In this document: positions 7,191 to 39,237 of the stretch, piece after piece
How positions within the stretch are numbered: the first letter of the stretch is position 1
Layout: every line of letters starts with the position of its first letter
Assembly: GCA_027625915.1 (NCBI GenBank)
Contig: JANTQA010000070.1
Coordinates: forward strand, 3,787,001-3,851,000
Reading direction: 5' to 3'
DNA from: Anaeramoeba flamelloides
Lineage: Eukaryota; Metamonada; Anaeramoebidae
Length of the DNA stretch: 64,000 bases
Position numbers and translations under genes: made by a program
Notes under the pieces: generated by a model
What the model saw: only the letters and a program-made list of their open reading frames with translations
Databases searched by the model: none
Told to the model about the DNA's origin: nothing

Positions 7191-7320
7191 TACAATCTTT
7201 TCAAGACAACCATACAATTTTAAATAAAATAAAATGGAATTTTCTATACATAGTTTCTATTTTCGAAAAATTCAGAAATAAGAATGATAATTCAAAAAAA
7301 CATTTTAATGAATGAGATAT

Positions 7321-7764
7321 TACAGCCGTTCCAAAGCTACCATAAAATTTTAAATAAAACAAAATTAAGTTTTCTATTTTTATTTTCCATTTTCAAAAAA
7401 TTTAGAAATAAGAGTTATTATTCAAAAAAAAATTCATTAAATGTGCTATTATTCAAATTTAATGAAAACTGAAAAACATATTGAAGATTCATGAAGCACT
7501 TAAAAATATTGTTGAAAAATTAAAATTTTAAAGATCAGTAAATATTGATATTGTTTTTGAGCTTTTTTGGACTGATAATTTTTAAGTTATAAGGGACCTT
7601 GAATATTTTTTTTCGGTTTTCATTAAATTTGAATAATAGCACATTTAATGAATTTTTTTTTGAATAATAACTCTTATTTCTAAATTTTTTGAAAATGGAA
7701 AATAAAAATAGAAAACTTAATTTTGTTTTATTTAAAATATTATGGTAGCCTTGGAACGACTATA
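7321..7764. mobile_element. Foldback element family F, copy 1
   Basis: Arms of about 160 bp (7321-7483 and about 7605-7764) are inverted copies of each other. The outer ends are TACAGCCGTTCCAAAGCTAC and the complement TATAGTCGTTCCAAGGCTAC, so TA bounds each side. A degraded extra copy of the left arm sits in tandem just outside at about 7195-7312. A related element with the same terminus but different interior lies at 61729-62129. It has no transposase frame. The long arms make it a foldback-type non-autonomous element. Confidence 0.72.
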
Positions 7765-8744
7765 ATAATGTAAAAAACAAAAAACTGAAATAATTTTTGC
7801 CCTTAATGTCTAAAGTATGAGCACAACGAACCAATAGAACATTTATTGATCATTTTTTATTTCTATGCCCTTCTTATGTAAATACTCGATTACTATTTCT
7901 CTTAATAAATTAAAAAAAAACCTTTGATGTTGATCTTAAACAATGAGAGTTGGAAATTATTTTCATTTATTAATAATTGTGTAATAGATGATTTTACGCT
8001 TAAATTTCATTTCAGAAAGGGAATTTAAGTCTAAGGGGATCTAGATTATAATTTACATTTCTTGATTGAAAGAAAAAAATAAAAAAGAAAATTTTCTTTC
8101 AAGATACAAAATATTTTTTTTTTTAATTTAAGGGATTAATATTTACCAAGGAGAATCGTACAATCAAAGTATGTTGTTATTGGATTTAACCACATTTGTG
8201 CTACAAGGTTCGAAAATCTCTAAAAAATCGATTAGTCAAGTAGTAATAGTTGTTGATTCTTATTAATTAAAAATGATCTATGTATTAGTAAAAAACCCAA
8301 CATTTTCAGAATCAAATCTGCATTTCGCTACAAATTTAAAGATTTAATTACCAACCACCAGACTACAAAGTCACAAAATATCTTTCTTAAATTTGTGGTG
8401 AAATGTAGATTAGTTCCTAAAAAAGTTGATAATTTTTGTTATAAAATTAAATAATTAACGAATAGATTCTTTTTGACTAATTATTTATGAAATACTGGAA
8501 ATATATTGATGCTACAATTTACTTTATCAAAAGCAAACAAAACTAACCTCTCTCGGTTTTTTTGTTGATTATTATTGAGATAATCTTTGAAATTATAAAA
8601 TTAAAAAAAAATAGTTACTTTTGGAAGTTCTAAAGATGAACTATTATTTACTGAGAATACATCTATGTAGAGTTTCTATTTTTCGATTTGGAAAAAGAAT
8701 TTTAAAAAAAAATTTCTAGAATGAAAATTGTTAATATTAATTAT
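7765..8744. other. Gene-free stretch with repeat fragments
   Basis: It contains a partial family K match (about 7949-8065) and a family L unit (about 8130-8300, marked by CTCTAAAAAATCGATT, also near 36630-36790 and inverted at 9230-9405). It also has a small imperfect inverted repeat at about 8310-8420 (AATCTGCATTTCGCTACAAA and its partner). No gene was found. Confidence 0.5.
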
Positions 8745-10326: not shown

Positions 10327-10760
10327 ATGACCTTCGAAATCGATATGAGTAGTTTAAATGAAAAAGGTTCTGATGAAGAAAACCAAAATAACAGTGAAGT
10401 CTTTGCAACACTAATCTCACTGAGTTATGAGACCCCACATTTAATGATCGAAAAAGATGAGATAATTATTGGGAGATCGACAAATGCCGATTTCCGTTTT
10501 ACAGATCGAAGAATTAGTAATATACATTGTAAAATTATACGGAACACAAACACAAACGAGTTTGTAATCCAAGACTGTTCAACAAACGGCACTTATATTA
10601 ATAATGAACGTATTGGGAGAGGCAATTCTCTTTTGGTTTCCTCGGGTGACGAAATTATGATTGCAACAAAATATGTTGATAAGGAGAACAATAGCCTTGA
10701 GCCAATAAAATATATTTTTCAAAATCACTGTTATGTTGAAGAGAAAACAAATGAGATTAT
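10327..10760 (+). CDS. FHA-domain exon, predicted first exon of a CHK2-type kinase
   Basis: It encodes about 144 residues with a forkhead-associated (phosphothreonine-binding) domain. IIIGRSTNADF supplies the conserved GR loop, RRISNIHCKI the S..H motif and DCSTNGTYIN the NGT/N motif, so all key ligand-binding residues are present. The ATG at 10327 is the first good start; an in-frame TTG lies just before it. The frame ends at TAA 10762-10764, but a GTAAAA donor at 10761 overlaps that stop. Splicing from 10760 to 15525 joins the two halves of one codon and continues into the kinase exon, with FHA-to-kinase spacing like CHK2/Rad53/Cds1. I therefore read this as exon 1 of a DNA-damage checkpoint kinase of about 465 residues. 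If the join is wrong it is a stand-alone 145-residue FHA protein. Confidence 0.8.
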
Positions 10761-10987
10761 GTAAAAATATCTTTTAATTTTTTTTTTTTCTTTTTTTTTT
10801 TTTTTTCAATTTTGGGACTGCTTCACTTGAAAAAAGTTTCTATTCCAACACCATATTTTTTTTTCGGGGTGTAAATTAATTTATTCTCAACAAAACTTCA
10901 ATTTTAAAACTTTTTTAAAAAGAAAGAAAATTTTTGATTTTTTATTTTTCCTTTCTCTTCATTTTTGGATTAAAAAAACAAAATTAA

Positions 10988-11236
10988 ATGACAACAACTG
11001 GTAATTTTTTGAAGAAAAGAGTTAAATCGGAGAACCCAGAATCACTAGAATGATTAGCCACACTTTACAAAAGAGAAAATTTACAAGATTTCTCAAAGCA
11101 AATTGCGATGAGTGAAGCTATTGTAATTTCCCAATTAATAAATGAAAATTTTTATTTCTGGTTTACAAATATCTTTACCAAACAAACTGAATGAAAAAAC
11201 CTCAAGATCTTCACGAGTCAAATTAGAAATGATTAA
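10988..11236 (+). pseudogene. Relic reading frame of unknown family
   Basis: An 82-codon stretch starting with ATG reads as ordinary protein (FLKKRVKSENPESLE, then LATLYKRENLQDFSKQ and SEAIVISQLINENF) but carries TGA at 11051-11053 and 11092-11094 and ends at TAA 11234-11236. Its amino-acid composition is richer than the translations of surrounding DNA, which suggests a decayed exon, here inside the predicted intron and on the same strand. I do not recognise the family. It could also be chance. Confidence 0.35.
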
Positions 11237-11641
11237 TTTTTTCGAATTTAGCTCTTCCTAATGGAACTTTTGAGATTGAAAATTTATTTTTTTAATTTGA
11301 ATAAAACAGTAGTGACCAAAATAGCCGAAAGATTTCACCTTCTTTAATAGGCTTTGGACAACAGTCATGTTACCACTTAAAATATGTTTTTACTGGTATT
11401 TTCAGGCTAAAGGGGAAAAAGTCTCACTTGATCTTTTTTTATTCATTTTTTGTTGTCAAGTAAAATTTCGACTTATAAAAAAGATTTATGAAGACACGAA
11501 CCAATTAACCGTGAATTTGAATACAAAATTTTAAACAATTTTGACTTTAATTTTTTGTTTTTTTCATCTAACAATCCATATTCAAAGAATTTATTAATTT
11601 AACTTTAGTTCGCTCAAATTTATTTCAGAACTTCTTAATTA

Positions 11642-12346
11642 TAAACTCTTTTTCAAATAAAAGGGCACAGAAATTTTTAAGAATTATTCATAATTGAATC
11701 AAATTAATTAGAGTATAATTCTAAAATCGAAGAAACTCTTTAAAATATAAAAAAACATCCAACCGAAGATTTAAAACTCATTAAAAACAAAACAATAAAA
11801 ATTAAAATTCAATATTTTAAAAATTGGTGTGGACTTTTATTTGAAATGAGAAATCCCATTTTATAAATTGTAAAGAAAAAACATTATAAAATCAACAAAA
11901 ACCTTTGAACAAGATGAATTGAGAAAAAGATCTCGACATTTTATTGATAAATTCTTTACACGTAAAACTTTTGTTCTTTAAAGTCTCATTTTCAATATAA
12001 AAGCCGCAAAATATCTGGTTATTTTGTTGGAATTGTTTTTTTATTGATTTTCTTGTTTCAAACATCAATCCAATAACCTTCTTTCTTAATTCCTATATCT
12101 AGCTCATTCGAAATCAAACTTAAACTGTTTCCATTTTTATACTGGTAGATTATTTACAAAGTATATTCCTTCTTATCTTGTTTTTTTTCATTTTCCAACT
12201 GTTCAATATCCAATAAATAAAAAAAACAAAAAATGAAAAAATGAATAATTCAAATGAAAATCACCAATAAGTAATTATCTTATTAACAATCAAATTTAAT
12301 AGTATTGATGATTTGAGAGGTGTGCCCTTTTATTTGAAAAAGAGTA
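11642..12346 (-). mobile_element. TIR element family A, copy 2 (inverted)
   Basis: About 705 bp with ends CTCTTTTTCAAATAAAAGGG on both sides (the right one as complement), each preceded by TA. It is inverted relative to 764-1475, with colinear interior similarity. The last TA (12345-12346) directly abuts the first TA of the next element. Confidence 0.75.
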
Positions 12347-12857
12347 TAGTATTGAAAAAAATGGCTTATATAAAAATAATCCCTGACAGGATTTTTAATT
12401 GTGAATCTTAGGAAAATTGTTGTGGAATTGCTATTATTTTAAAATCAAATCCTATTTATAAATAACCAAATTTTTTATGAACCAAGTAATAAACCTACCT
12501 AAAGTTCATTAAAGTAAAGTATCTATAGAATACTAATTTAATTGTTTGGTAACCTCTAAGTAGATCTACTTTTTTTGAAAAACAACCTAGTTTTATAGAT
12601 ACTTGCTCGAAATTTGGAAAATGATAATTTTTTATTCTTATTTTTGGTTGATTAAATATGTTTTGAACACGTGTAATTTAATTAATCATCATTCTAATAA
12701 GTGGGCAAGTTATAATTTCAAAAAGTTTGATTCTTCAAAAAGGATTTGATGTTAAATAAAAGAAATTATTAAGTAATTACATAGCAATTTCACGAATACT
12801 AACAATTAAAAATCTTATCAGGGATTATTTTCAAGTCAGGCATTTTTTTCAATACTA
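12347..12857 (+). mobile_element. TIR element family B, copy 1
   Basis: About 511 bp with ends TAGTATTGAAAAAAATGGC and the complement TAGTATTGAAAAAAATGCC. Inner TIR parts include TTTTTAATTGTGAATC and its partner. A second, inverted copy is at 16865-17362, sharing the internal block CCAAGTAATAAACCTACCTA. The TA boundaries indicate a Tc1/mariner-type target. No coding frame. Confidence 0.75.
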
Positions 12858-12868
12858 TAATGTAAATA

Positions 12869-13412
12869 TAAACTTTTTTTCTGTCAAATGGACCCAAATT
12901 TTTTTCCAAATATCAATTATTTTTTAGAATTGGATTTTGAAGAACAAATAAGAAATAAGTAGAATAATACCAATCAAAAAATTGTTGATAATTGTATAAA
13001 GTAAATCTAATAAATCTAATAGATTTTCTTAATAATTGAAAAACTAAAATACCTAGTGAAACACTGAGAAAAATGAGAATATAGATTTTGATCTCTAATT
13101 GAAGATCAAATAAAATTCCAATAGAAATCAATATGATTTTTCTACAACCCCATTCACTGTTTCAATAACATTAGAATAACACATTTTTACCAAGTGGCTA
13201 TTGATCTTGCAATAAAAAAAAAAATTGCAAAATGAATTAGGTATCAATACAAATTACATAAAAAAAGAAAAAAATATGATCGCAAAAATGTGAAAAAATG
13301 ATTTCAATTTTGAAATTTAAAATAAATTTTTTTCTTCTAATATCGATTCAACCCCTTTATACGAATACAATTCACACATTACAGCTGGACCCTTTGACTG
13401 GAAAATTGTTTA
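12869..13412 (-). mobile_element. TIR element family C, copy 1
   Basis: About 544 bp. The ends contain CTGTCAAATGGACCC on the left and the complement CCAGTCAAAGGGTCC on the right, and TA lies about 10 bases outside each. Related copies cluster at 26790-27970, and a fragment is near 32880-33080. A short frame at 12913-13131 (minus) is repeat-derived and not conserved end to end. Confidence 0.65.
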
Positions 13413-13529
13413 ATTTTTATTATCAAAAAGGAAGCAATATTCATCAATTTTCCAAACGTAAAAAATATCATATAAAATCGTGATCAGAAAAAACTTTGAT
13501 ATCTTGTATTAAAGTAATGCCATATGAAC

Positions 13530-13830
13530 AAACAAATTGGATTATTATGTACGATCGATTTATGATCAATAGTCATTTTGAATATTTAAATAGTTCAGTA
13601 TTGTAATTAAGTTGAATAAATATTTTTTAAAATAAATTTGCTCCACTTTTCAGGATATAGCTTATAACTCTGATGAGTGCTTTAAAGTTATCCTGTCAGA
13701 TAAACAAAACAAATTGGATACACTTAAACATCAATAAATGATGAATAACAATTTTGGATATTTAAACCGTTATATTAGAATTTAATCGAATAATATGTTT
13801 TAGAATATTTTTAGCTTCCCTTCAAAGAAA
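13530..13830 (+). repeat. Imperfect tandem duplication
   Basis: Two diverged units of about 120-190 bp, at about 13530-13650 and 13710-13830. Each begins ACAAATTGGAT and contains TTTTG.ATATTTAAA and the GAATAATAT/GAATAAATAT motif. Function unknown; it lies inside the predicted giant intron. Confidence 0.4.
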
Positions 13831-14516
13831 TTGCAAAAATAAAGAAATATCAAATTAAATAATATTTTAATTTAACAAATTTGAATCTGGTTCTGGAATT
13901 ATTAAAAAAACAATAAAACTTTCTAAATTTTTCCTTTCATGTTTCTTCTAAAAAATAAAATTTATCTTTTTAGATCAATTAAAATAGTTAATTCACATTT
14001 TTTTTGAAACTCCAATTCAAAATTTTTAACAAACCAAAATTCAATTTTTGAAAAAAAAACTTCTAAATCAATTCTCAAAGAAATGCCAAATTAGAACTCA
14101 TTCAATAATTGAAATGTTAACAATTTTTTATAAATTACAATACTCACAAAACAAAAAGCAATCAATTATCAATACAAATAAATCAAGGCTGTGTTAAGAA
14201 TTTTGGAGAGAGCAAAATAAAAAAATATATTGAATTTATTGTTAAGGGTTAGACGAAACCTCATCTAATCTGTTAAAGAGGTAATTTTGAAGTGACTAAA
14301 TTTGAGACATTCTAATTCAAAGAATATCTAAATAGATACAGTCATCAGAAGTATTTGAATCTTAATTTAGTTTTCTAAAACAAGAAAGAGTAAAAAATGA
14401 AGAATTGGTGTAAAAATGACAGAAAAAAAAGAATGAAGAGTGGAAAAAATAAATAGGTTTAAAATAATTGTTGTGAGATACCTGGAATTTTCTGGTTTAA
14501 GTGGATTTGTTGATAG

Positions 14517-15180
14517 GTTTTATTTTGTATTGAGCTCCTTTTTCCTAATTGCACATTGAGGCATGTTGGTTAGAATATATTCTATGGTAATGTCATAGAT
14601 TTCTTTTATGTTCATTTTCCTCAATAATTCATCTGTGTTTTTTTTTTGAAGTAATGGTGTTAAAGTCAAAAATTTTGATTTTTCTGATTTGTTTTTTCCA
14701 GTGTTTCCTGGTTCTCTCATATTTTTCACAGTCCCAAATAAAGTGGTCTATGTCATCAATTTTTTTGTTACTGCACGGGCATAATTTAGAATTTACTCCC
14801 TTTTCCCATATATATGTGTATATATTCAACCCATTACAAAATGATTTGAGTTTGAATAATGTAGTTGATGATTACCAGTTTAAGTAGGGCTGTTTTTCTT
14901 TGAAGTTTTCTGGAAACTTACTAATCTTTAGGTATTTCTTTAGTTTCCAGTTTTCGTCCCCTTTCGATGAATTGACTTTGTCTTGTATTGATTTTATGTG
15001 GACTTGTTGAAGTTTTTTCTTTATTTCTATTTTCCCCATGTTTTCCCAATCAATACCTTCAATTTCATCCAGTGTTAGATCTTCAGCTAGGAAAAAAAAT
15101 ACATTGGTAAATTTGTAAAAATTATTTAGGAATATTGTTCGATCAAATGGTTAGATATCATCATCAACTAATTTTATTTG
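14517..15180 (-). pseudogene. Non-LTR retrotransposon ORF2 C-terminal relic
   Basis: The minus-strand frame can be followed for about 220 codons across at least two stops (TAA near 15147-15149 and near 14882) and one frameshift in the A-run at about 14640-14648. It reads KLVDDDI, FLAEDLTLDEIEGIDWEN, HIKSIQDKVNSS and SFCNGLNIYTYIWEKG, then the zinc-finger-like tail CPCSNKK..DHFIWDCEKYE. The C-x-C..H..C cluster followed by a Trp-rich basic segment is the usual C-terminus downstream of the reverse transcriptase in LINE-type ORF2 proteins. The polymerase domain itself is missing, so this is a broken internal/3' fragment. Family placement rests on that motif only. Confidence 0.6.
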
Positions 15181-15524
15181 AGTTCTTCTATTTTGAACAA
15201 CTCAATTTTAACCTAATATCAATTGTTTCAAAAAAATATTGATCAAACGAAAAAAGTTATGTAATTCAAAAAATGAAATGAAAACAAAAAACTAAAAAGA
15301 TTAAAAAATGATTTTCATATTTGACAAAAAATCAAAATTTTTTTCCAATTTAAATGAAATTGTATTATTATAATTCTTTGAACTGTTTTAACTGTGTGTA
15401 AAATTTTGAATTTTAGTTTATTTTTTAAATTTTTTTTTTTTAAATTTAAAATCAGAACATTAATGCTTTTTCACTTTTAATTGATAAAATTTATTTTAAA
15501 AACGGTCTGTGAAAAATATTTTAG

Positions 15525-16488
15525 TTCAGAAATTGATGAAAGTGAATTAGGAAAAATTTTTCAAATTAATGACACGCTTGGTAAAGGAACATTTGGAATT
15601 GTTTATTTGGCGACTCATATTGAAACAGAAAAGCAAGTTGCCTTAAAGGTTATTAATAAAAAAAAAGTTGCACAACTCGACGAAACACAAGATTTAAAGC
15701 AAGAAGTTGATATTTTGACTTCCTTAAGTCATCCTTATGTGATCAATATTTATGAGGTATATGAAACAGAAACATATTTAATTATTTGCCTCGAAGTAAT
15801 TGAAGGCGGCAGTTTAGCAGAGTTATTGGAACAAAATGTAAAAATAGATGAGAAAACAGCAAAAACAATTTTTTTCCAAATTGCCACAGCTGTGAGTTAC
15901 CTACACGGTGCGGGTATTGTTCATAGGGATTTAAAGCCCGAAAATATATTGCTAAAAGATCAAACAAACCCAATACATATAAAAATCACTGATTTTGGTC
16001 TTTCAAGAATGCTCCATTCTCAAATCATGCTAAGAACATTATGTGGCACGCCGCTGTATTTGGCACCGGAGGTGATGTCGTCGGGGATTTTTGGATATTC
16101 AGAACAGGTGGATATGTGGTCGTTAGGTGTCATCCTTTATCAGCTATTAAGCGGGAATTTACCAATACACATTAATACCGATTTGATCACCATATTCGAA
16201 CAAATTAATAACTTTTCAGTCCACTTTGATAAAAGCTGGATCGGGGTATCAGAAGAAGCAAAGGACTTAGTTATACGGCTCCTAGAAAAGGATCCCAAAA
16301 AAAGATTAACTGCAAAACAGGCCTTAGAGCATTGTTGGATTTCAAAATGCAGTTTCTTAAACAAAGATTTCCAATTTAACACTTTAACTAAACAATTAAC
16401 AATAGGTTCCAACAATCAAACACAAAACCAATGGTCTTTAGAAGACAATTACAATCAAAATGATTTGGTAAAAAAGGAATTTTGGTGA
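15525..16488 (+). CDS. CHK2/Rad53-type Ser/Thr protein kinase, catalytic exon
   Basis: This encodes about 320 residues of a complete protein kinase domain. It has the glycine loop GKGTFGIV, VALKV lysine, QEVDIL glutamate, HRDLKPEN catalytic loop, DFG, activation loop LRTLCGTPLYLAPEV, DMWSLGVILY and the subdomain XI arginine in KKRLTAKQALEHCW. All catalytic residues are present, so it should be active. The activation loop is very close to the RTLCGTP.YLAPEV signature of CHK2 and its Cds1/Rad53 relatives, which phosphorylate cell-cycle and repair factors after DNA damage. The upstream frame closes at TAA 15478-15480 and no ATG precedes the kinase core, so the start must come from an upstream exon, best the FHA exon at 10327. 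A short Gln/Asn-rich tail ends at TGA. A CAMK-type kinase of another subfamily is the alternative. Confidence 0.92.
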
Positions 16489-16864
16489 TATTTTTTTTTT
16501 ATTTTATTTTTTTTTTTTTTATAAAATTATTATTAATTGAAATAATTGTTTTATTTAATGTTTATTATTATGAATATAAATTCATATTTCTTTTTTAAAA
16601 AATAAATTAGTAATTTTGAATTTATTATTATTATTACTTATTTTTTTCCAACTTTTTTTCTATCAATTAAAAACCGGAGCATTAGATCCAACCAAAATTT
16701 CAGTTTCTTCACTTTTCCAAATTTGAGATTTAATTCTAAACTTTTAGTAAAAGTAATTTTTTTGTTACTATCATTTCCTATTCATGTGAAATTGGATTTA
16801 AGAGTACCGAAATAGATATTATTTCAGTTTGAGGAATTTCGGTTTTCAGTTTATCTGTAATTTA

Positions 16865-17362
16865 TAGTATTGAAAAAAATACTTGGACATGAAAAAAATC
16901 CAGGAAAAGATGTTTAATTGTGAATATTATGAAAATTGTTCAGTATTTTCCTCTATTTAAAATGAAATCATTTTTTTTTATGGAATCTAAACTTTTAAAA
17001 CTATCACTCACACTCATATAAGAATGATGATTAATGAAATTCCCCTTGTTCATAACAGTATTCAATCAATCAAAAAAAATAAATAAAAATTCTCCTTTTC
17101 CAAACTCCTAGCCAAACTTCTCTAAAATTCAATTATTTTTCAAAATAAAGTAGATCTATTTATATTATCAAACAATTACTTTGGTATTCTAGAGACGCCC
17201 TACTTTAATAAACTCTAGGTAGGTTTATTACTTGGTCCATAAAAAATTTGGTAATTTATATAAAGGATTTGATTGAAAATACACATTACAATTTTCATAA
17301 TATTTACAATTAAAAATCTTTTCCTGGATTTTTTTCCATACCAAGTATTTTTTTCACTACTA
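16865..17362 (-). mobile_element. TIR element family B, copy 2 (inverted)
   Basis: About 498 bp between the kinase gene and the RasGAP-like gene. The ends are TAGTATTGAAAAAAATACTTGG-like on the left and the complement of TAGTAGTGAAAAAAATAC on the right, with TA boundaries. The interior matches 12347-12857 in reverse, for example GGTAGGTTTATTACTTGG. Confidence 0.72.
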
Positions 17363-17860
17363 AACAGCAAAAAGTAAATTAAAAAATAATTGAATAATTT
17401 TCTTTTTCCCAACCTTTCTTACAATCAAACCCAATTTGAATATTTTTTTCTGGTTTGTCAATTTTTTACGAACTGATTTCTCTTAAAAAGTTAAAAAAAC
17501 AAGACGTATCTTAAAAAAAAGATATTATCTTCAAAAAAACCTACAGACTTTTAGTCTTATTAAACAATTCACAAATATTTCTTCAGTCATAGTTATAGAA
17601 GGGTTAACTCTGTTTTGGAAAAAATTTATTTCATTTTTTGTACATTTGATATTTAAAACGTTTTTCCAAATTAGGTTCTTTTCTAAATTTTAAATGGAGC
17701 TTGTAAGATTAAAATTTATTAAAAAAATACTCTCTGATAAACATTTTCGCTCTCTAATATTTTGTTCTTCTTTATTTTTTATTAATTTAATTTTTTTTGT
17801 TCTTTCAAAAAGAAACATGATCATCAAACAACACAAGAAGAAGAAAAAACAAAAAACAAA

Positions 17861-19908
17861 ATGATCCTAAATTCAAAAAAAATTGAATTGCTCTTAAATG
17901 AATGTGAAGAAACACTTGTATTTTACCGATCAAAAAAAAAGGAAGAAAACACAAGATCTCTTGCAAACGGAAAAAAGCAAAAAAAAAATAATCTTCCAAA
18001 TGAAAAAATCGAAATCCACACCTCGGCTAATATTAATATTCTTCAGTTACCAAGCGAATTACAGCACCACGATCTTAATATTTCACCTGATCCTAAAACG
18101 AATAGGAGTCTTAGTGATCATCCTAATACTGATAAGAATAAAAATACGGATCAGAAAAACGATCATTATCAGAATAAAAACAAACTAAAAACAAATGAAG
18201 GAAAAACGGATATTGAAGAAATGGAAGAATTTCTTAAGGCAACAAAAGGTAATTTAAATAATGAAATTAAAATCCTTAACGAAGGCTCGTTTTTTAATGA
18301 CTTTAATTTATTTGAATCGATTTCAAATTTATCGCCTTTATTAAATAACCATTTAAAACAATTTTCAATAAAAAATGTTAATAATCCACAATTCCTTTTA
18401 AATAGTATTAATTCAATAAATAATAACAAGAGAAACCAACAACAAACAAAACAAAAGAACCCAATTATCAAAAAATTAATCAAAAAATTGAATAAAAAAA
18501 AATTAAAAGTCTTAGAATTGGAATTAAAAAATTATGAAAACAAAAAAATAAAATTAATAAACAAAAAAAAGAAAAATAATGAAAATAATTATATTTTAAA
18601 AATAAAAGAAAAAAGTGAAAAAGTAAAAAGAGTAAAAGAAAAACAAAAAGAAAGAGAAAGAGAAAGAGAAAGAGAAAGAGAAAGAGAAAGAGAAAGGGAA
18701 AGGGAGGAATAAAAAAAACAAATATATTCCAAATTCGTTGGAGGGTGTTGGGAAACGTTAACAAATTTCCAAACATTTGATTCATTAATTTTCCAAATAA
18801 TTAAACAATTCAATTTGAAAGAAAAGAAAAAATATAATTCAAATTCGCAATTAAAAAATGATATTGAAAAAATTCTTTTATCTTGTGATCACAAAAAACA
18901 TAATAATGAAAGCAAGTATTGTATATTTTATTTTGAAAAGCAAATTCAAAAAATGATTCTTGATAATTTTAATAAATATGATTTAAATTTTTTAGAATTA
19001 TTCAAAAAAATAGATTTTATTATTGAAAATGAATTAAATATTAAGAAAAATAATAAAATAGTTGCTTGTAAAAAGAAAATTATTGATCTGTTAAGAAAAA
19101 AATTAAAATTTAAAAATTTAGTAATTATAAAATCAAATATTTTTGAAACAATGAATTTATTATTCCATTTATATATTTATTCGAGAATTTATTTTAATAG
19201 TTTGGCTGAAAAGACTTCAAAAATTATAATGAAGAAATATTTAAAAACTTTTAATCAAATCCAAAGTAATAAAAAAATTTTTCAAAGCAAGAAAAAAAAG
19301 AGAAAGAAAAAGAAAAATGTCAGAAAGAAAAAAATAAGAAATTCCCATTCAAATAATATGATAGAGATCAAATCAAAAAGAAATATTGATGGAGATAGCT
19401 TTGATGATGATTTCAAACATAAATCATTAAAAAGATCCTCGTCCACGGTAACTGAATCTGGTAAATTTAATTCAAAAGAAATTCAAACGTCTTCAAGTTT
19501 TTCTGGTAAAATTGATAATAAAGAATTCTTACCAACAGCGTCTACATCTGCAATTCCAAGAAACAAAAGAAAGAAAGGGGGAAAGAAAAAGAAAAAGAAA
19601 AAGAAAGGGGAAAAGAAAAAAACAATAAAGTCATCATCTTCTTCTTCAAATCTGATTTCATCATCTTCATTAAATGCAATTTTAACGTCAATACAAGCAA
19701 TAGAAGTGTCGGGAATTGATGAATTAATAATAAAAATGAGTAATAAATTAATCAGTAATTTTAATGATTTTTTTTATTCATTTCCAAATTATAAACAAAT
19801 AAAAATGTTTTTAGATATATTATTATCAAAATTTGAAACTTTAGAAAAACCAAATCCCAATAACTGTAACAATGGCATGTATGATAACTATAATGGCAAC
19901 TATGATGA

Positions 19909-24060: not shown

Positions 24061-25440
24061 ATGGGAAACACTTTTAATGAGAAAAACTTTCCCAAACTAA
24101 ATGCTAAATCATTTAAAAAACAATTTATATCTCAATCAGCCTCAGGACAGACTGTTTTTTATTTGGATGACTTTGGAAGGGTATGTAGTGTAACTGATCA
24201 TTGTTGTAAATTGTTTGGAATTAACAGTGTTGAAAGTCTCCAAGGCTTTTCATTGGAACAGTTTTCACCAAAGAAGCAGCCTCACCTTGGAAAAGCAAGT
24301 TTTAGTTTGATGCAAAGATATACGATAAAGTTGATTTCCGAAAGAGAACAAAAACTAAACATTGTTTGGTGCTGTGTTTCACCAAAAACAATTCTATCTG
24401 ATATAACGAAACCAAAGGAAAAGTCTCCAAAAATATTGACTCCTGTCTCTCAGAAAAAAATCAAAGACAATGAAAAGGAAAAAGAAAAAGGACAAGAACT
24501 GGAAATTAAAAAAAAAGAGACTTTAAAATCGAATAAAACCAAGAAAAACAAAACAAAGGACAACTCAAAAAAATATGAGAAATTGGGGTTACCAAAGGAA
24601 GCTCTGTGGTTTGTATTTGAAGTCGCTCCATTAATTATTGAAGACAATTTGTATTTCCAGTTTAATATCACAAAATATGAAAGACCAAATACATTGTTAG
24701 ACAACCAAATTAAAATCTTATCTTACAAAAAAAAATCAAAAACACTCAGAAAAGGCTTGAGGAGTCCCAAAAGAGTTTTGAAAACAGCTCTATGAATAAA
24801 AAAAGTCTTCAAATTCAAGATGATTTAAAAGTAAAAATCAATGTCTTAAACACGATTCGCAATAACATAATAAAGAAGCAACACGAAATCAAAGAACTGA
24901 AGAACATAATCGCACAGAGAACAACAGAAACATTAGAAAAGGAATTAAAGCCCATGGTGATCCAAATGAAAAAAAATGAAAGGATCCTTTCTTTGGATTT
25001 ACACAAATTGCAAAATGAAAAACAGGTCGTGAACATAAACAAATAAATGGAGGTTTTAGAACTGCGGAAAAAACAACTGAAGAAAGAAACAAAAAAGATC
25101 ACGAACGATCTTGAGGAACTTAATAAAGAATATGAAAAGTCTGAGCAATTACTTGTGAAGTGGGAAAAAAGGAATTTGGACAAAATCTTCGCTGAAAAGC
25201 AATTCTTTACACAGAAGAGTGCGATCGAGGATTTGGTTTCAAGTTCAGAGATAGCCAACCGTAGTATTGAAAAAACAGAGTTAAGAATACAGAAATGTAA
25301 ATCCAACAAAGACTTAACAGTTCAAATTTCACAAACAAAGGATAAATTACAAAAAATGATCAAGTCAATTAACCTTTTAAAAAGAAGTCTCAGAAAAGCG
25401 AAAAAAAAAAAAAAAACTTCAATTTACATTCTCATAGAAA
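24061..25440 (+). pseudogene. PAS-domain/coiled-coil protein gene, broken by a frameshift and a stop
   Basis: The start MGNTFNEKNF has a Gly2 that could be myristoylated. Next is a PAS-like sensor segment (VFYLDDFGRVCSVTDHCCKLFG, FSLEQFSPKKQPHL), a Lys/Glu linker and AALWFVFEVAP-like sequence. The frame ends at TGA 24793-24795, but the next frame continues the protein: shifting by one in the A9 run at about 24725-24733 gives KNTQKRLEESQKSFENSS and then a long coiled coil. That frame meets TAA at 25044-25046 where a Gln would fit (NKxMEVLEL) and continues to the A-run near 25410. So one gene of about 450 codons carries at least two disabling changes. PAS domains bind small ligands or partners for signalling; the partner here is unknown. 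Such PAS-coiled-coil families are abundant in Anaeramoeba-like amoebae (recollection, unchecked). Homopolymer sequencing error could explain the frameshift but not the TAA. Confidence 0.65.
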
Positions 25441-25852: not shown

Positions 25853-26780
25853 GCAATATATCTGAAAATATGATAAAACTCATGATAATCAACAAATTTG
25901 CGATCAAAAAAGTAAAAAAACACGTTGTATAAAATTGAGTAAAATATTTTTTTTTTCTTCAATCTTATAAAAATGACTTAAAAAGTCAATAAACATGAAA
26001 AAATATTCAAAAATAATGTAATTGATGCTTTATTAATTTGATTTTATGTACACAATAAAAAATCAAATCATATTTATTTGGGTTGGGATATATATTTTCA
26101 GAAATAATTATTAAATTTATGACAATTTTTTTAATTAGTAAAAAAATAGAAATTGGTGATCAAAATAGAAATTTGTGATATAAGCTCAACACATGATAAT
26201 CTCATTTTGTCCTTAAAAAAATATTTTGAAGAATTTCAATACAAGCATATCCAAAATGTGTTGAGTCTCTACCCTTCATTAATCGAATACATTTCACTAA
26301 GTTTAAATTAAGAATTATATTTTGAAAATCCAAAGAGATCCTGGTATTAAAGAAAAAAAAATTTAATATACTCTTGCTCTATTTAATAAAAGCATGAAAA
26401 AAAAAAAAATAAAGATAAAAAAAAGTCATCATATAACTCGAATTATCATCCCCGTGGATTTCAAAAAAACAAAATAGAATATATTAATGAAATACCTTTT
26501 TTAATTATTTTTAAATATGATTGAATCGAACATTTTGAATAAGTTTTTTTCAAGACATATTAATTAATATGACAATTTTCAAATATCAAAATATTACAAA
26601 AACTAGTGTTTTTCTGTTCAAAATTGATTTTTGTGATTGGCCATTGAAAAAATCACATATGATATTAAAATGATTTAGTACTCACTGAAAATAATACAAT
26701 CCATTTCCCAGACACAGGTCCTAGTTGTAATATTCTAATACATGTTTTTAAAGTATTTGGACGGGTTATTCCAACAAAAA
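25853..26780. other. Gene-free stretch with a possible coding relic
   Basis: Mostly AT-rich and featureless. At 26150-26350 (plus) a 53-codon open stretch followed after one TAA by 12 more codons reads like protein (NLILSLKKYFEEFQYKHI, ELYFENPKRSWY). Family unknown, possibly a decayed exon. Confidence 0.35.
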
Positions 26781-26789
26781 AATAAATTT

Positions 26790-27970
26790 TTAAAATTTTC
26801 AAAATTGAAATCAGTTTTTCATATTTTTTTACATTTTTGTTTTTTTTTTTCTCAGTTTCTTAAATTCATTTTACAAATTTTCTATTTAATTTGCAAGATC
26901 GATAGTTACTTGTAAAAATGTCTTATTCTACGGTTATTGAAAAAGTGAAAATGATTATTGAAAAAATGATATTGATTTCTATTGGGATTTTATTTGATCT
27001 TCAATATAAGATCAAAATGAAGATTATTGTTTTTCTTAATAAACTATTTTTCAGTCAAATGGGCCCAGTTGTCATGGTGAAATACATGTTTTTAAAGGGT
27101 TTGCATAGATATTAGAAGAAAAATTTTATTTTGGAAATTTTCAAAATTGAAATCATTTTTAAATCATTTTTTCACATTTTTGTTTTTTTTTTTCTATTTT
27201 TTTTAAACGTCATTCAGTTGTAAAAATTTTTTTTATTACAAGATCAATATTCATTTGGTAAAAATGTGTTATTCTAAGGTTATTGAAACCATTGGAATGA
27301 TTGTTGAGAAATCATATTGATTTCTATTGCAATTCTATTCGATCTTTGATCTTGATATTAGTTAATAAATGTGAAAATTTTTCTCTTCTTTTTCATTTCC
27401 TTTTTCAAATAGAGATCACAAATACCAACACACTTCGGCTGGGGACTTGATTTCTAAAAGAAAAGTATGAAAAATAAAGTGAAAAATGTTTCATATTTAT
27501 TATTCAAATACCAGTAGAAGTTCAAAACGAACATTGTTGTTTTTCTCAATAGTGGCCCTAAGAATTTGATTTTTTCAATTTTTAAGAAAATTTATTGATT
27601 AATTAGTTTTTTTTCAGGCATATATCAACAATTTTTTGATGTGTATTATTCTGTTTATTTCTTATTTGTTCTTCAAAGGTCAATTATGTAAAATAATTGA
27701 TATTTGAAAAAAACGCTGGTCCCCTTTGACTGAAACAGAGTTTAGGTAACCCATGATTATACGTTTATCAGTTTTTAAGAAAATCTATTGATTTTTTAGT
27801 TTTATTTTATAATGGATAACAAATATTATTTGATGTGTATTATTCTACTTATTTCTTTTTTGTTCTTCAAAGGTCAATTAGAAAAAATGATTGATAATTT
27901 GAAAATTATCTGGGGATCTTTGACAGTAACAAAGTTTATATATGTAAACAACATATTTGCAATTTTTTTT
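26790..27970 (+). mobile_element. Cluster of family C element copies
   Basis: A best-defined copy spans 27040-27744 (about 705 bp), with CAGTCAAATGGGCCCAG at the left end and CTGGTCCCCTTTGACTG at the right end, and TA outside each. It is flanked on the left by a partial copy of the internal region (26790-27039) and on the right by a duplicated right end (27745-27970, GGGGATCTTTGACAGTAAC). The short frames at 26918-27115 and 27812-28021 are repeat sequence. The arrangement suggests tandem insertion or nested duplication of one element. Confidence 0.6.
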
Positions 27971-31243: not shown

Positions 31244-32327
31244 AATGCAGAAGATTTAGTAACTTATTTAATTAATAACTATATTGACGACAGAGCGTTT
31301 TTTTTTAATAGACCTTGGCAATGAAATAAAGGTTAATATATTAAATCTACCTCATGATAATAAATATTCACGTGGTATATTTAATAAAGCAGAAGAAATG
31401 GTCCTGGAAAACATATGCAAGAAATATTTCCCAGAATTCAAAAAATCTCCATTATTTCAACAATTTTGTCAAATTGATTATGAACAAAATCAATTATTAT
31501 TAGAATCAACGTATAGAATAGGATTTTTAACTTCAGAGCAGAAAACAAATACATTACTCAACAATTTTTTCAACAACTCTGATGAAATTCCAAATCCCAA
31601 TAAATTAATTTAAGAATTAATGGGAAAATTAATAGAAATGCTTAATGTTAATTTTTCAATTAGTAGTGAAACAATCAATTGCCAAAAAATCACACAATCG
31701 ATATCATTTAAAAATTTTCAAAATTCATGCTCCCTCTTCAATAATATTACAATTAATGATATAATTAGTCTTGATCAACAATCTAAAAAAGCCTTTTTTC
31801 TTAATCTTTTTAATGTGATCAGCATACACTCAATAATCGTTAATCCAAACCCAACTGATAAAAATTCTTTAAATCATTTTTTAAAAAATAGTAATTATTC
31901 TATTGATGGCTATATATTTTCTCTTCATGATATTAAATATGGCGTTTTTGAATTGTCCAAAAGATGGAAAAAGAAATTAATTGACAAATTAACACCCTTT
32001 TGCGTTAATTATGATCCCAGAATCAATTTCGCGATTATGAATTTCACTACCCATCCAAACAAATTGACGGTCTTTTATCCAGAAACATTAGAGAAACAAT
32101 TGGATGAAACTACGGTTAATTATCTAAACCAATATTTAAAAATCGAAAAACAGAAGAAAAAAATATTCTTGCCAATTATTAATAAAGATAATTTTTATAA
32201 TTATGAAAATGCTAAAATTTGGATTAGGAATTATTTAAAAATAAAAGACCCAATATCCTTCCATTTAAATAAATTAGAACAAACAAAATCACTAATCCGA
32301 AATTCAATTGATTTAAATGTAAAGTAA
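31244..32327 (+). pseudogene. DEP-DUF547 region, frameshifted and interrupted by TAA
   Basis: After an acceptor TATTATAG at 31243 the frame reads AEDLVTYLINNYIDDRAF, the C-terminal half of a DEP-like helix bundle. It shifts one base in the T-run near 31298-31306 and continues IDLGNEIKVNILNLP. TAA at 31611-31613 interrupts where Gln would fit (KLIxELMGKLIEML). The frame then continues 235 codons to TAA 32325. That part shows the DUF547 pattern: KKAFFLNLFNVISIHSII, then YSIDGYIFSLHDIKYGVFE, then PFCVNYDPRINFAIMNFTTH. DEP modules target signalling proteins to membranes or GPCRs; DUF547 has no established function. It lies downstream of the RGS blocks on the same strand and is probably the same gene. 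DUF547 is recognised by pattern only. Confidence 0.6.
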
Positions 32328-33857
32328 ACTATTTTTTTAAAAAAATAATTCATTTTATAATGTCATTGGAAGTTGTTTTGAGGGTTTGGTCCTATATTTT
32401 TATCAAAATAAAATTTCAATTTCTGGAACAGATTCCTTTTTTCTAATTTTGGTCATTTTTTCTTTTTCTTTTTTTCATTTTCTTTTTTTGTTTTTTTCTA
32501 TTCAAATTTTTTTTTTCTTTGTGTTTTTTAAGAAAACCAACTGCAAAATTATGAAATTAACTTTGAAAATACCAATAAAATTTAAAAGAAAAATGAGGCA
32601 ATGTAATGTCTTTTGATATGTATCTATATATTTATTGACTTAAAAAATCTTGTTGTTATACTTTTTTCATTGAAATTTCGATTTAATAAAAAAATTATAA
32701 TGTCAATTGTTTCTAGATATTTATTTTCTTATTTCATTACTTTTCATTTTTATCCTTTTGAATTCATGCAATAAATTTAGAACTGCAATTCTTGATATCT
32801 AATTTTTTCTTAAATTCAAATTGTCTTTTTGAAACTAAATCCCAGGAATCCTAGATTCCTGAAAAAACTATTTATTTTGAAAATTTCATAATTTAAATCA
32901 TTTTTTCACATTTTTGCTTTTCATATTTTTTGATTTTTCTTTGAGACAGGTAATTTTTTTGCAAAAATTTTAATTATTGCAAGGTCTATAGTCACTTGGT
33001 AAAAAAGGTGTTATTCTAAAGTTACTGAAACAGTACGAGAATGATCGCCTAGAAATTATATTGATTTCTCTTGGAATTTTATTCTTATTTGGGAAAAAAA
33101 GTTCAACACGATTTTTAATTAGTAACATTAATCGAACCTGAAAACAAAAAGTAAGATCCAATTAAAATAAGAAATAAATGAACTTCAAATAATAATTCAT
33201 TATATTATCTTCAATCAAATCAACAAAAACAATTTAAATCTCCTTGATTATCAAAATCTAGAGAGTAGTTTTGGAGATCTTAAAAAAAGTTAAATTTTTT
33301 TGAACACATTTTTAATAATTGTCCAATCAAAGAAAAACCTCAGATCAAAAGACTGTATTAAAAAAACTGTTATTGTGTTGAATATTTCATTTTGTCGTTA
33401 TTTATTATTATATTCTTTTATTAATTGATCAAACTTTTCATTTTCAGGTTTCTGTGATTCTATTAATGTTCCAATTAAAAATTATGTTGAACTTTTTTTC
33501 CCCTATTACAATTTTTTTCCAGAATAGTTAATGTGCTTATTGAAAGAAGGTAGAAATTAAATTGGTTGGTTTTCAGCTAGATTAGCGCTTTACTTTTGAA
33601 ATATTTAAATAACCTTTTTCAAAGCAGTACCAACCAATGGATTTTGTGAACTTTTTTATTGCGGGGATTATGCGGAGTATATTACTTTTCCAAACGATCG
33701 ATAATACCTTATTAATTTTTTAAAAACTGTTATTAGTGAATTTGTTAAAACCATTTACCAATCTTATAGGAAAAGACTTGTTATAAAAAAAATCAGGTTT
33801 GTTCTATTCTGGAAAGTTTATTTGTTTAATAATTGGAAAAGAGGAAGAATTATATTT
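32328..33857. other. Intergenic between convergent genes
   Basis: Region between the 3' ends of the DUF547 relic (plus) and the CDP-DAG synthase gene (minus). It carries a fragment of family C at about 32880-33080 (CACTTGGTAAAAAAGGTGTTATTC). No gene seen. Confidence 0.45.
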
Positions 33858-35395
33858 TTAAATTCCAAGACGATTTTGGACAATTTCTGTTAAATTGTCC
33901 GAGATAATTTTAAGTTGTTCGTCATCTAAAGACTTTATTTTGGAAATAATTGGAGAGATATTGTCGCTTGAATTTAAAATAAATGTGTTTATATAAACAT
34001 AAGCAAAAAATCCCATTACCCATTGGCAGTCAAAGCGATCCACTAACCCACCATGTCCTGGGATTGTATTTGCAAAGTCTTTAATATTAATTGCCCTTTT
34101 CAAGCCAGAGGCAAAGAAACCTCCAAAAGGTGCAATTAAAGAAGCAAAAACTGCGAGAATCAGCGAATGGAGCTGTAGTGGAAGCAATTCGATGGTATTG
34201 GAAAGATTTATTCCAATTTTTGCAAATGTATCAATAACATAAAGTGGTAAGGAATATTGCTGTGGTTGAAACACATAGTGCCTTTCGCATGTTGTCACAG
34301 GAGTGTCTAGATTTTCAAGTGGGCATACCATATAATCAAAGATGTTATATAATTTTGCAATCTAAATTTAAAGTGAAATTTTAAAAAAAAAACATCACAA
34401 TTTCAAATGTTTGTGTTTTTGAGAAAACAAAAGAGAAAAATGAGTTCAACAGATATGCGTTTTTAAAACTCTAAAATTAGATTGTACTCAAAAAAAAAAA
34501 AAAAAGCAAATAAAAAGGGAAAAGGTTTTACAAAAAATGCAGAAATCATTGTAGTGAAAAAAGCGCCAATAAAGCCTTCCCAAGTCTTTTTAGGTGAAAC
34601 CATAATCAGAGGGTGTTTGCCAAATGAGATCCCCCACAAGTAAGCAGCGATATCGTTGATAAAAATAAGTGTGATTGGTAACAGTGCCCAAACAAGCCCG
34701 TCTAAGAGGTTCCTAATCATGACGTTTGTTTGCCAAACAATCAGAACCAAGGCCATGAGGCACCACGACAATTTTTTGAACTGGTATTTGTAATGGCCTT
34801 TCTCCAAGGACGCCACAAACAAAATAAAGCATGTGATATATAAGGTATAGCTGATAAAGGTGTGGTAATGAGAAAAAATTGCCAAAAATGAAAATTTCAT
34901 CAACCAGTTTGAATAGCGCTCCAAGAGAAATTTGCCATACAAATAATAGACCAGCGAAAAGAGAAATAGATAAGGGAAACTTTTGTTAGCCCAACCAAGC
35001 TTTTTTTCACGTTGTGTTTCAAGGGACAAAAGAATCACTTCACGAAAGGAAAAAATTGTAATGAGCACTAATGCGAACGCAACAGAAATGTGACCCATAT
35101 AAAAAATGAAAAAAAGAATCCCGATCAATAGAAGTGTAGATTTTGTTCTCGTTTTAAATTTCTCTCTTTTGGCTTTCGCTTCTTCTTCTTCTTTGTCGGT
35201 TTTTTTCGAGTCTTTCTCTGTAGTTTCTTTGTTTTCTTTATTGTCTTTTTTTTTGTTGTCTTTGTTTTGGATTTGTTTGAATTGCTCTTCTTCGTACTCT
35301 TCTGCTACGCTTACTTCAGTAGCCTTTGTAACTTTATTTTTGTTGGCTCTTTTCCTTTTGTTTTGTTTTTTTTTATTGTTTCTATTTTTTTTCAT
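33858..35395 (-). CDS. CDP-diacylglycerol synthase (phosphatidate cytidylyltransferase), two exons
   Basis: Exon 1 is 34532-35395 and exon 2 is 33858-34361; removing a 170-bp GTAAAA..TTTAG intron (phase 0) gives about 455 residues, like animal CDS1/CDS2 (about 445). The enzyme makes CDP-diacylglycerol from CTP and phosphatidate, feeding phosphatidylinositol and cardiolipin synthesis, in the ER or inner mitochondrial membrane. Residues 1-85 are Lys/Glu-rich and cytosolic. Multiple hydrophobic helices follow, then FINDIAAYLWGISFGKHPL, SPKKTWEGFIGAFF, and in exon 2 FASLIAPFGGFFASGLKRA, IKDFANTIPGHGGLVDRFD, the family signature with its Mg-binding aspartates. The join restores the region before MVCPLEN, which aligns with the FVCPVEY segment of animal enzymes. 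The start ATG is at 35393-35395. The gene looks intact. Confidence 0.92.
34362..34531 (-). other. Intron of the CDP-DAG synthase gene
   Basis: 170 bp on the minus strand starting GTAAAACC and ending AAATTTAG, phase 0. Without splicing, exon 1 runs into Phe-rich nonsense and exon 2 lacks 11 residues of conserved sequence before its first Met. Confidence 0.8.
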
Positions 35396-36790: not shown

Positions 36791-36802
36791 ATCTTGTATT
36801 GC

Positions 36803-37362
36803 TTAAGGTTTACAATCCCTGAAACTGGAAAAAAGATTATCTTGTATTGGGTGTGTCAACTTGTTATTTTGGTTCTTAGCTGATCGATCCACAACTAAGT
36901 TTGGATCGTATAGGTGGTTGAAAAAGGCTATTTTTGTGATTTTATTTTTTTTTTTTCCGAAATCCAGATTGACGAGTCTAAGATTAATTGATTGATGGGT
37001 ATTGAATTGAAAGTGTTAATTTTTGGGTTGTCAATTGAAATTATCATTTTCCTTTTACAGAGTTAGGAGTAAATAAAAAAAATTTTTTTTACAAGCATCA
37101 AATAATACAAAGCGTAAATAAAAATTTCAACATAGAAAACAAAAAACTCAATCACTAATTAAATATCTTCCAATTAATTAATCTTAGACTCATCAATTCG
37201 GATTTCGGAAAAAAAAAAAATAAAATCACAAAAATAGCCTTTTTCAACCACCTATACGATCCAAACTTAGTTGTGGATCGATCAGCTAAGAACCAAAATA
37301 ACAAGTTGACACACCCAATACAAGATAATCTTTTTTCCAGTTTCAGGGATTGTAAACCTTAA
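36803..37362. mobile_element. Foldback element H with near-perfect long arms
   Basis: A 560-bp unit whose first about 187 bp (36803-36989) and last about 188 bp (37175-37362) are almost identical inverted copies, around a 185-bp loop. The outer ends are TTAAGGTTTACAATCCCTG and its exact complement, so TTAA (or just TA) marks each boundary. Differences between the arms are only a few bases. No coding frame. It could be a piggyBac-like (TTAA) or Tc1/mariner-like (TA) foldback MITE. Confidence 0.8.
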
Positions 37363-39237
37363 GTGACGAGTAACTCTTATTTATTTCTATTTTTCCCAAT
37401 GGTAATCGAGCAATTATTTACACAAGGGTACAATTAAACTCGTTATTCAAATTCGCTTATCAACTTTAGAGAAATGATTTAGCATTTTTAAAAGAATTTA
37501 TTTTTCCAATGAAATTTTCAGTAAAAAGATCTCTTTTTATTTTTTTTTATTGTTGGGATTTTTGGCAATTAAAATTAGAAAAAAAAAAATTTACTTAAAA
37601 ATATAATTTTGAAGAAATCTCACTTTGAGTAATTTCTGAGAGCATGTATTCAAAAAATAACCTTGAACCTTGTGTCTTTAATCTTATTTTATAAATACAA
37701 TAAAAACAATTCAAATATTGAATCCTTGAAGATCTAAAAAAAATTGATCTTCGATTTTATTCATAAATATTCATTAAATTTCTTGAAAATCATGAGTTTC
37801 GACAATATTTTTTTTCAAACACTAAGAGTTTAAACAAGGAACTGTTTATATTAAAATCAATTATTTGATAATATCTATTATTTTTTTTTATTAGATTTAT
37901 TATTTTGGAACCGATTTATTTGTTTGAAAATTTTAAAAAAATTGTGAAATAAATATAAAGTCTATTGATACATTTAGTCTTTGTGCTTTTAATAACTCAC
38001 TGAAAAAATTAAGATTGAGATTATTATTGATTGATTATAAATAATAAAATTAAGAGATATTTATTAAGGTTATAAGTCGAATTTTCCAGGTTTTAAAAAA
38101 GTATTTTGGAAGAATTTCTAATTTGATTCTTTGGTTCTTTTTCTCAGTTTTTTTTTATTCAATAAAGAGGAAAAAATGATTTGAATGGTTCTTTGAATCA
38201 AAAAATTATATTTTTTTAATCATTAAGTTGATTTTTATATCCTAAGTAATTCCGAAATCTAGTGGTTTTTATTTTTTAAGTGTATTTTGGTAGACTTTCT
38301 TTACTAATATTAAGATTTATTTCTTTTTTCAAATTAAATAATTTTTTTACAAATTATTCTGAAATACATTGAATTTTATTTATTTATTTATTGTGGGAAA
38401 GGAGTAATCAAAGAAAATTTAATAAATAAAAAAATGAAGAAGAAAAATAATTAAAATATTAATTTATAAAAATAATTATATGATTTACATGACCAAATTA
38501 AAAATTATCCAATTTCGTTAGGTTTTCCAGGATTTGAAAGAATTGAGTAAAATCCTTGATTTTACTAAATTATTTCGAATTCTGGAAAATCTAGACACGC
38601 CCCCTGAAACAGAAGCAGTAAAAACCCGATAGAAAAATTATCAGCAATCAATTAGATTCCACAAACTGTGATTAATAAATGGTATTCCACAACCATGAAA
38701 AGTGGAGCACAATGTACCCGAAATTGTTTAGTTTATTTTTACTATTTTAGGAATTTTTTAATTTCAAGATGAGGTAATTTTTTTTGAATTTGCCTAATAA
38801 ATTTACGAGAAGATTTTTTTAGTTTACTAGTCGCTTAAAAATCAATAAAAAAATAAAAAAATAAATTTCACTAAATTTTTCTTCATTAATGAAAATACTC
38901 TGCAAAACCTTTGTAAACCAAATACAAAAACAATGAAAAATAATTGTAATGAAGCCAAACTTTTTATTATTAGAAAATATGTTTAATCAAAAAACTGTTC
39001 GAAATTGCCTATTAATTCTTATAAAATAAAACTCCAATTCCTAGTGATACAAGAAGTGGATGATATACTACTTTATTTCATCAAGATCTGAATCAATATT
39101 TTTCGTATTCCCAAAAGAGATATATTTATATGGAATCGAAAATTAAAATTTACTTTTTTAAAAATTAGAGGATAATTTTCAAAAAAATACAAGTATGCAA
39201 AATAATATTATTTTGTTAATCAAGAAGCGATTAGAAA
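37363..39237. other. Gene-free AT-rich stretch
   Basis: 3' flank of the Hsp70-like gene on the minus strand. No gene, RNA or matched repeat identified; a slightly GC-richer patch at 38590-38730 has no open frame. Confidence 0.45.

What the first reader, a model, noticed from the sequence alone, without database searches (positions are those of the whole stretch)
10327..16488. A CHK2-type kinase gene apparently split by a 4.76-kb transposon-filled intron
The FHA exon stops at a TAA that overlaps a GTAAAA donor. The kinase exon has no start codon and an upstream stop, but has an ATATTTTAG acceptor. Joining them keeps phase exactly and gives CHK2-like spacing. The gap is over 20 times the other introns here and holds three TIR elements, a LINE relic and an unknown relic frame. 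Either a huge intron is tolerated in a checkpoint gene, or insertions have split the gene into two transcripts.
Basis: partly seen in the sequence, partly recalled or inferred. Interest (0 to 1): 0.75.

Follow-up and report, generated by a model that had tools for sequence, protein, structure and literature searches.

The report
FHA kinase gene with long intron
An amoeba's CHK2-like signalling kinase gene is one gene interrupted by a 4.8-kb intron full of old transposon debris, and sister genes and unrelated genes in the same genome carry introns like it, so this is an ordinary feature of a transposon-rich genome.

Summary
FHA exon 10327-10760 and kinase exon 15525-16488 flank a phase-2 GT-AG interval of 4764 bp; joined they give a 465-aa FHA kinase. 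It aligns without a gap at the junction to a database protein of Anaeramoeba flamelloides (304 of 445 identical), the likely species or a near relative. In the window's own 254-Mb genome four close paralogs have an intron at the same residue: 3874, 4656, 5361 and 291 bp. Database proteins of the 3874- and 5361-bp copies run straight across that junction. The long intron is therefore a shared, tolerated trait of this gene group, not a recent split. It is in the upper tail but not exceptional here: 16 of 47 chaperonin introns inferred from match gaps are 2 kb or more; "20 times the other introns" holds only locally. The kinase exon has no usable start codon, and one inserted element is about 9% diverged from its family while the reading frame is intact, which argues that the gene stayed functional after that insertion. 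The stop at the donor follows from a phase-2 GTAA donor. No RNA evidence was available. Ordinary: TE-expanded intron.

The parts
10327..10760 (+). Exon 1 of the FHA kinase gene (start codon, FHA domain); ends in phase 2
   Evidence: joined residues 25-144 align with P0001 19-136
10761..15524 (+). 4764-bp GT-AG intron (GTAAAA ... TATTTTAG), phase 2
   Evidence: same residue and phase in paralogs C26, C76, C61, C37
15525..16488 (+). Exon 2: kinase domain and C-terminal tail, stop TGA
11642..12348 (.). TIR element A (MITE-like, 707 bp), 9.3% from the leave-one-out majority of 20 fetched copies
12345..12859 (.). TIR element B (88-nt arms, 81% complementary), related copy at 16848-17365 (76%)
12866..13412 (.). 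Repeat with pieces related to 26767-27941 and 32861-33083; TIR status not verified
13509..13822 (.). Internal direct repeat (13509-13648 / 13682-13822, 71%)
14008..14222 (.). Repeat related to 1823-2042 (77%)
14520..15089 (-). Decayed 3' end of a probable LINE (CxC...H...C motif, recalled as LINE-like); frames broken by a stop and a shift
15090..15447 (.). High-copy repeat ending 77 bp before the end of the intron
11119..11311 (.). Old repeat, mostly 70-78% to other genomic copies
   Evidence: query positions 220-412
34362..34531 (-). Comparator: 170-bp intron (GTAAAA ... AATTTAG) of a CDP-diacylglycerol synthase-like gene (Pfam CTP_transf_1)

Best explanation
One protein-coding gene for a CHK2-like FHA-domain Ser/Thr kinase of an Anaeramoeba (A. 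flamelloides or a very near relative). An ancestral phase-2 spliceosomal intron between the FHA domain and the kinase domain, present in all five close copies and so probably older than their duplication, has accumulated transposon insertions and is 4764 bp here. The pre-mRNA is spliced from 10760 to 15525 to give one mRNA for a 465-aa protein. The stop at 10762 is read only if the intron is retained. Shown: exons, frame, homologous junction, intron position and size in paralogs, repeat content, intact frame. Inferred: that this particular copy is transcribed and spliced; that transposon insertion is what lengthened the intron.
For: Alignment with P0001 has no gap at the junction. P0001 is 99-100% identical to the own-genome C26 exons, P0002 99-100% to C61, P0005 96-99% to C37: database proteins already run across introns of 3874 and 5361 bp at this site. 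Same residue and phase in C26, C76, C61 and C37. The kinase exon cannot start on its own (first in-frame Met at residue 177 of 335). Element A in the intron is 9.3% from its family majority (65 of 696 sites); at that neutral distance 1 of 2000 simulated copies keeps the kinase part free of stops, and the window keeps 75 of 75 residues invariant in the seven other aligned kinases. The C26/C76 pair, with introns of 3874 and 4656 bp, has dN 0.009 and dS 0.22, alike in both exons. Long introns are frequent: 16 of 47 chaperonin within-domain introns >=2 kb.
Against: No RNA data. No protein 90% or more identical to the window's kinase was listed, so no database model confirms this copy. How the models behind P0001 and P0002 were made is not described in the passages I saw of PMC11550330. 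Three neighbouring genes carry in-frame TAAs, so decay may be under way nearby. The age of element A assumes that the family majority is its ancestor; with an older subfamily it would be younger, and at d 0.05 46 of 2000 simulated copies stay stop-free. Only one chaperonin intron of 47 is longer than this one, and none of nine kinesin introns.
Confidence: 0.92

Rival explanations
1. Insertions have split the gene: a truncated FHA-only transcript and a separate kinase transcript.
For: FHA frame has its own start and stop and a T-rich sequence follows; three neighbouring genes look damaged.
Against: Kinase frame lacks any Met before residue 177 of 335; frame and 75 of 75 invariant residues kept although element A is about 9% diverged; database proteins of two paralogs with equally long introns run across the same site.
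Confidence: 0.04
2. A recent pseudogene: the copy was silenced by the insertions and has not yet decayed.
For: No protein 90% or more identical listed in the database searches; at a neutral distance of 0.05 46 of 2000 simulated copies would still be stop-free.
Against: At the distance measured for element A (0.093) 1 of 2000 simulated copies stays stop-free; 75 of 75 invariant residues kept. The simulation uses an assumed substitution model without indels.
Confidence: 0.03
3. The kinase exon is joined to a different upstream exon inside the interval.
For: The interval holds short open frames; alternative donors were not tested exhaustively.
Against: The last FHA-exon residues match P0001 directly before the junction.
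Confidence: 0.01

Closest known systems
Intron expansion by transposable element insertion (general, recalled; raised as a possibility in a passage of PMC11649378)
   Same: Conserved intron position, TE content, size differing between paralogs
   Different: Nothing qualitative; large against the short introns of the same genome
CHK2 / FHA-domain kinases (human CHK2 3i6u; 'fhke-related' kinases of A. flamelloides)
   Same: FHA then kinase, matching the 3i6u chain over residues 61-420 in one stretch; RTLCGTP activation-loop segment shared
   Different: No SQ or TQ in residues 1-24; one of many FHA kinases in this genome

Membership tests
CHK2-type checkpoint kinase | FHA domain N-terminal to a CAMK-type kinase domain | tested here: met
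CHK2-type checkpoint kinase | N-terminal SQ/TQ cluster (recalled definition) | tested here: not met
   read from the translation: no SQ or TQ in residues 1-24
CHK2-type checkpoint kinase | Activation by ATM-type kinase in DNA damage response | not testable with these tools
   none
Spliceosomal intron | GT-AG ends, frame kept, homologous junction | tested here: met
Spliceosomal intron | Removed from the RNA | not testable with these tools
   no RNA data; database proteins of two paralogs run across the same site
TE-expanded intron | Interval largely made of dispersed repeats | tested here: met
   2625 of 4764 bp by within-window matches, 3195 with the LINE-like stretch; 40 scored of 1822 and 40 scored of 4974 genome candidates for two of the repeats
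LINE (element 14520-15089) | Reverse transcriptase / endonuclease domains | tested here: inconclusive
   only the 3' end is here; no supporting Pfam hit; relatives have frames up to 1014 aa but were not typed

The most novel reading that the evidence does not exclude
The multi-kb length of the FHA/kinase intron is itself maintained: 4 of 5 close copies (the window's included) keep 3.9-5.4 kb at the same site while the inserted repeats differ, and 22 of 29 hand-picked FHA-kinase pairs lie more than 3 kb apart, as if a long intron were needed for regulation (timing, control by intron retention with the built-in stop, or a regulatory element near the intron ends). No test of this against the genome's baseline was made.
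Probability: 0.07. Interest if true: 0.5.

Novelty: new member of a known kind. Interest (0 to 1): 0.22.

Why it matters
It supplies a gene model that the protein database searched here seems to lack for this copy, and shows that in this genome exons kilobases apart, with transposons between them, can be one gene. Gene finding and claims of split genes in Anaeramoeba should allow for introns of at least 5-6 kb. The wide range from short (100-350 bp) to long (2-6 kb) introns offers a system for asking how a protist spliceosome handles TE-filled introns.

Tried and rejected
Viral contigs scanned for the TIR of element A: 0 matches. Genome contigs scanned for P0001: one Lachnospiraceae FHA hit, unrelated to the question; both tools warn that the window's own genome may be left out. 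A home-made intron finder on the window returned 145 candidates; the 26 shown lay mostly inside known exons and did not include the 170-bp intron, so it was not used. Bacterial promoter scan upstream of the kinase: 5 found, 4.4 expected in shuffles, uninformative. A TAA=Gln code was considered for the in-frame TAAs of three neighbours and rejected: TAA ends five of the six intact frames counted, and those six long frames hold 132 CAA and 29 CAG codons; they were chosen stop to stop, so lack of internal TAA is by construction and the argument is their length. The residue test was partly circular (the window helped define the invariant columns) and was redone without it.

Full report
Observation. 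The FHA frame runs from ATG 10327 and ends in TAA at 10762-10764, overlapping a GTAAAA donor whose G is 10761; the kinase frame 15481-16488 follows a TAA at 15478-15480 and an acceptor TATTTTAG ending at 15524. Joining 10760 to 15525 keeps frame and gives 465 aa. Pfam gives FHA at 1.9e-17 and protein kinase at 2.1e-78. The first in-frame Met of the kinase frame is residue 177 of 335 (index 176 from 0), past the HRD and DFG motifs, so the exon cannot make a kinase alone. The stop at the donor needs no special explanation: with a phase-2 intron and a GTAA donor the retained reading is always xxG TAA.

One gene. The nearest database protein, P0001 of Anaeramoeba flamelloides (458 aa, named fhke-related), aligns with the joined protein at 304 of 445 identical positions with no gap at the junction. 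Human CHK2 (3i6u) matches residues 61-420 in one stretch. A B-box-type gene at 52148-53770 is 96% identical over 91% to an A. flamelloides protein, so the window is from that species or one very near it; the strain is not known. No match of 90% or more to the window kinase was listed; a near-identical protein of 256-814 aa should have headed the list.

Paralogs in the own genome. After nine unanswered requests, the genome search reported a 254-Mb, 76-contig assembly with the window at C70:3787001-3851000 and 63 FHA matches; the joined protein gave 94 matches, 91 of 1161 candidates being scored. I fetched four close paralogs and two other FHA loci; the two others gave no match to the joined protein at E <= 1e-3. 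The four have an intron at the same residue and phase: C26 3874 bp, C76 4656 bp, C61 5361 bp, C37 291 bp. P0001 is 99-100% identical to the C26 exons and 96-98% to those of C76, P0002 99-100% to C61, P0005 96-99% to C37, so database proteins already run across the long introns. In PMC11550330, the A. flamelloides genome paper, RNA-seq was mapped with a maximum intron of 10 kb; the passages I saw do not describe how eukaryotic gene models were made (by passages; section 10 read whole). RNA support of those models is therefore not shown here.

Intron content. Within-window matches cover 2625 of 4764 bp, 3195 with the LINE-like stretch. Element A (11642-12348) has TIRs and full-length or nearly full-length relatives: 40 scored of 1822 first-look candidates, 86-89% identical apart from itself. 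The segment 15090-15447 gives 40 scored of 4974, and the LINE-like piece 150 scored of 3469, in frames up to 1014 aa. The first 0.9 kb holds an older repeat at about 11119-11311 (40 scored of 221). The introns of C26 and C76 align at their 5' end (79% over 588 columns), at their 3' end (88% over 359) and in several inner pieces; the window's intron shares with those two element B and, with C76 alone, one 76-column piece, and with C61 three pieces, of which two are repeats also seen elsewhere in the window.

Still functional? C26 against C76: dN 0.009, dS 0.22 (YN00), with 0.009/0.19 for the FHA exon and 0.009/0.23 for the kinase exon, so both halves of a gene with this intron are under purifying selection. 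Window against C26: dN 0.21, dS not estimable (NG86 undefined, YN00 failed). Element A of the window differs from the leave-one-out majority of 20 fetched copies at 65 of 696 sites, as much as the most diverged of those 20; the 20 were taken from the 40 scored most similar, so the family is sampled with bias. With a neutral distance of 0.093 a stop-free kinase part survived in 1 of 2000 simulations, at 0.06 in 34 and at 0.05 in 46 of 2000 (an earlier run is). The window keeps 75 of 75 columns that are invariant in the seven other aligned kinases. This is indirect evidence that the gene was used after the insertion.

Is the intron unusual? Genome-wide it is not. Of 109 chaperonin (PF00118) matches, 47 neighbouring pairs gave an intron size from the gap: 22 under 500 bp, 6 of 500-1000, 3 of 1-2 kb, 16 of 2 kb or more, 5 of 3.8 kb or more, 1 longer than 4764 bp. 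Splice sites of these were not checked, pairs with missing exons were not counted, and near-identical copies are not independent. Nine kinesin pairs worked out by hand gave 115-2442 bp, one over 2 kb; a tenth pair overlapped too much and was dropped. For FHA kinases I took by eye 29 of the 94 matches that had an FHA match nearby; 23 of 29 FHA-to-kinase distances exceed 2 kb and 22 exceed 3 kb. These are distances between domains and may hide further exons; in three distant loci inspected the exon structure differs from the window's. So 4764 bp is in the upper tail but of a common kind.

Verdict. One CHK2-like FHA kinase gene with an ancestral intron that is long and TE-filled, as in three of its four close sisters. 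Not a split gene on present evidence; RNA is the missing proof. A CHK2 orthology is not claimed: the N-terminal SQ/TQ cluster (recalled feature) is absent.

Noticed in passing
18710-18712, 25044-25046, 31611-31613: Three neighbouring genes have an in-frame TAA in the middle of apparently continuous coding sequence, one also a frame shift near an A9 run at 24727-24735; a Gln would fit each TAA, but TAA is the ordinary stop of the intact genes, so decay or assembly error is likelier than recoding.
   Followed up: partly
window 10327-16488: No protein 90% or more identical to the window's FHA kinase was listed although proteins of three paralogs were: perhaps a missed or misjoined gene model.
   Followed up: partly
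L004 and L005 (C26 and C76): A close paralog pair (C76 is 96-98% by exon to P0001, the C26 protein) with introns of 3874 and 4656 bp: haplotypes or a recent duplication.
   Followed up: partly
own genome, PF00118 loci: Inferred intron sizes pile up under 500 bp (22 of 47) and at 2 kb or more (16 of 47), with 9 of 47 between.
   Followed up: partly
L034-L053: 13 of 20 fetched copies of MITE A lie within 2.5% of the leave-one-out majority, suggesting recent activity.
   Followed up: no
36802-37363 and 7318-7767: Near-perfect inverted repeats (207-nt arms 96%, 159-nt arms 97% complementary), probably young foldback or TIR elements.
   Followed up: no
G000:C24:2392003-2392221: The same LINE-like piece lies antisense in the FHA-kinase interval of another FHA kinase locus.
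   Followed up: no
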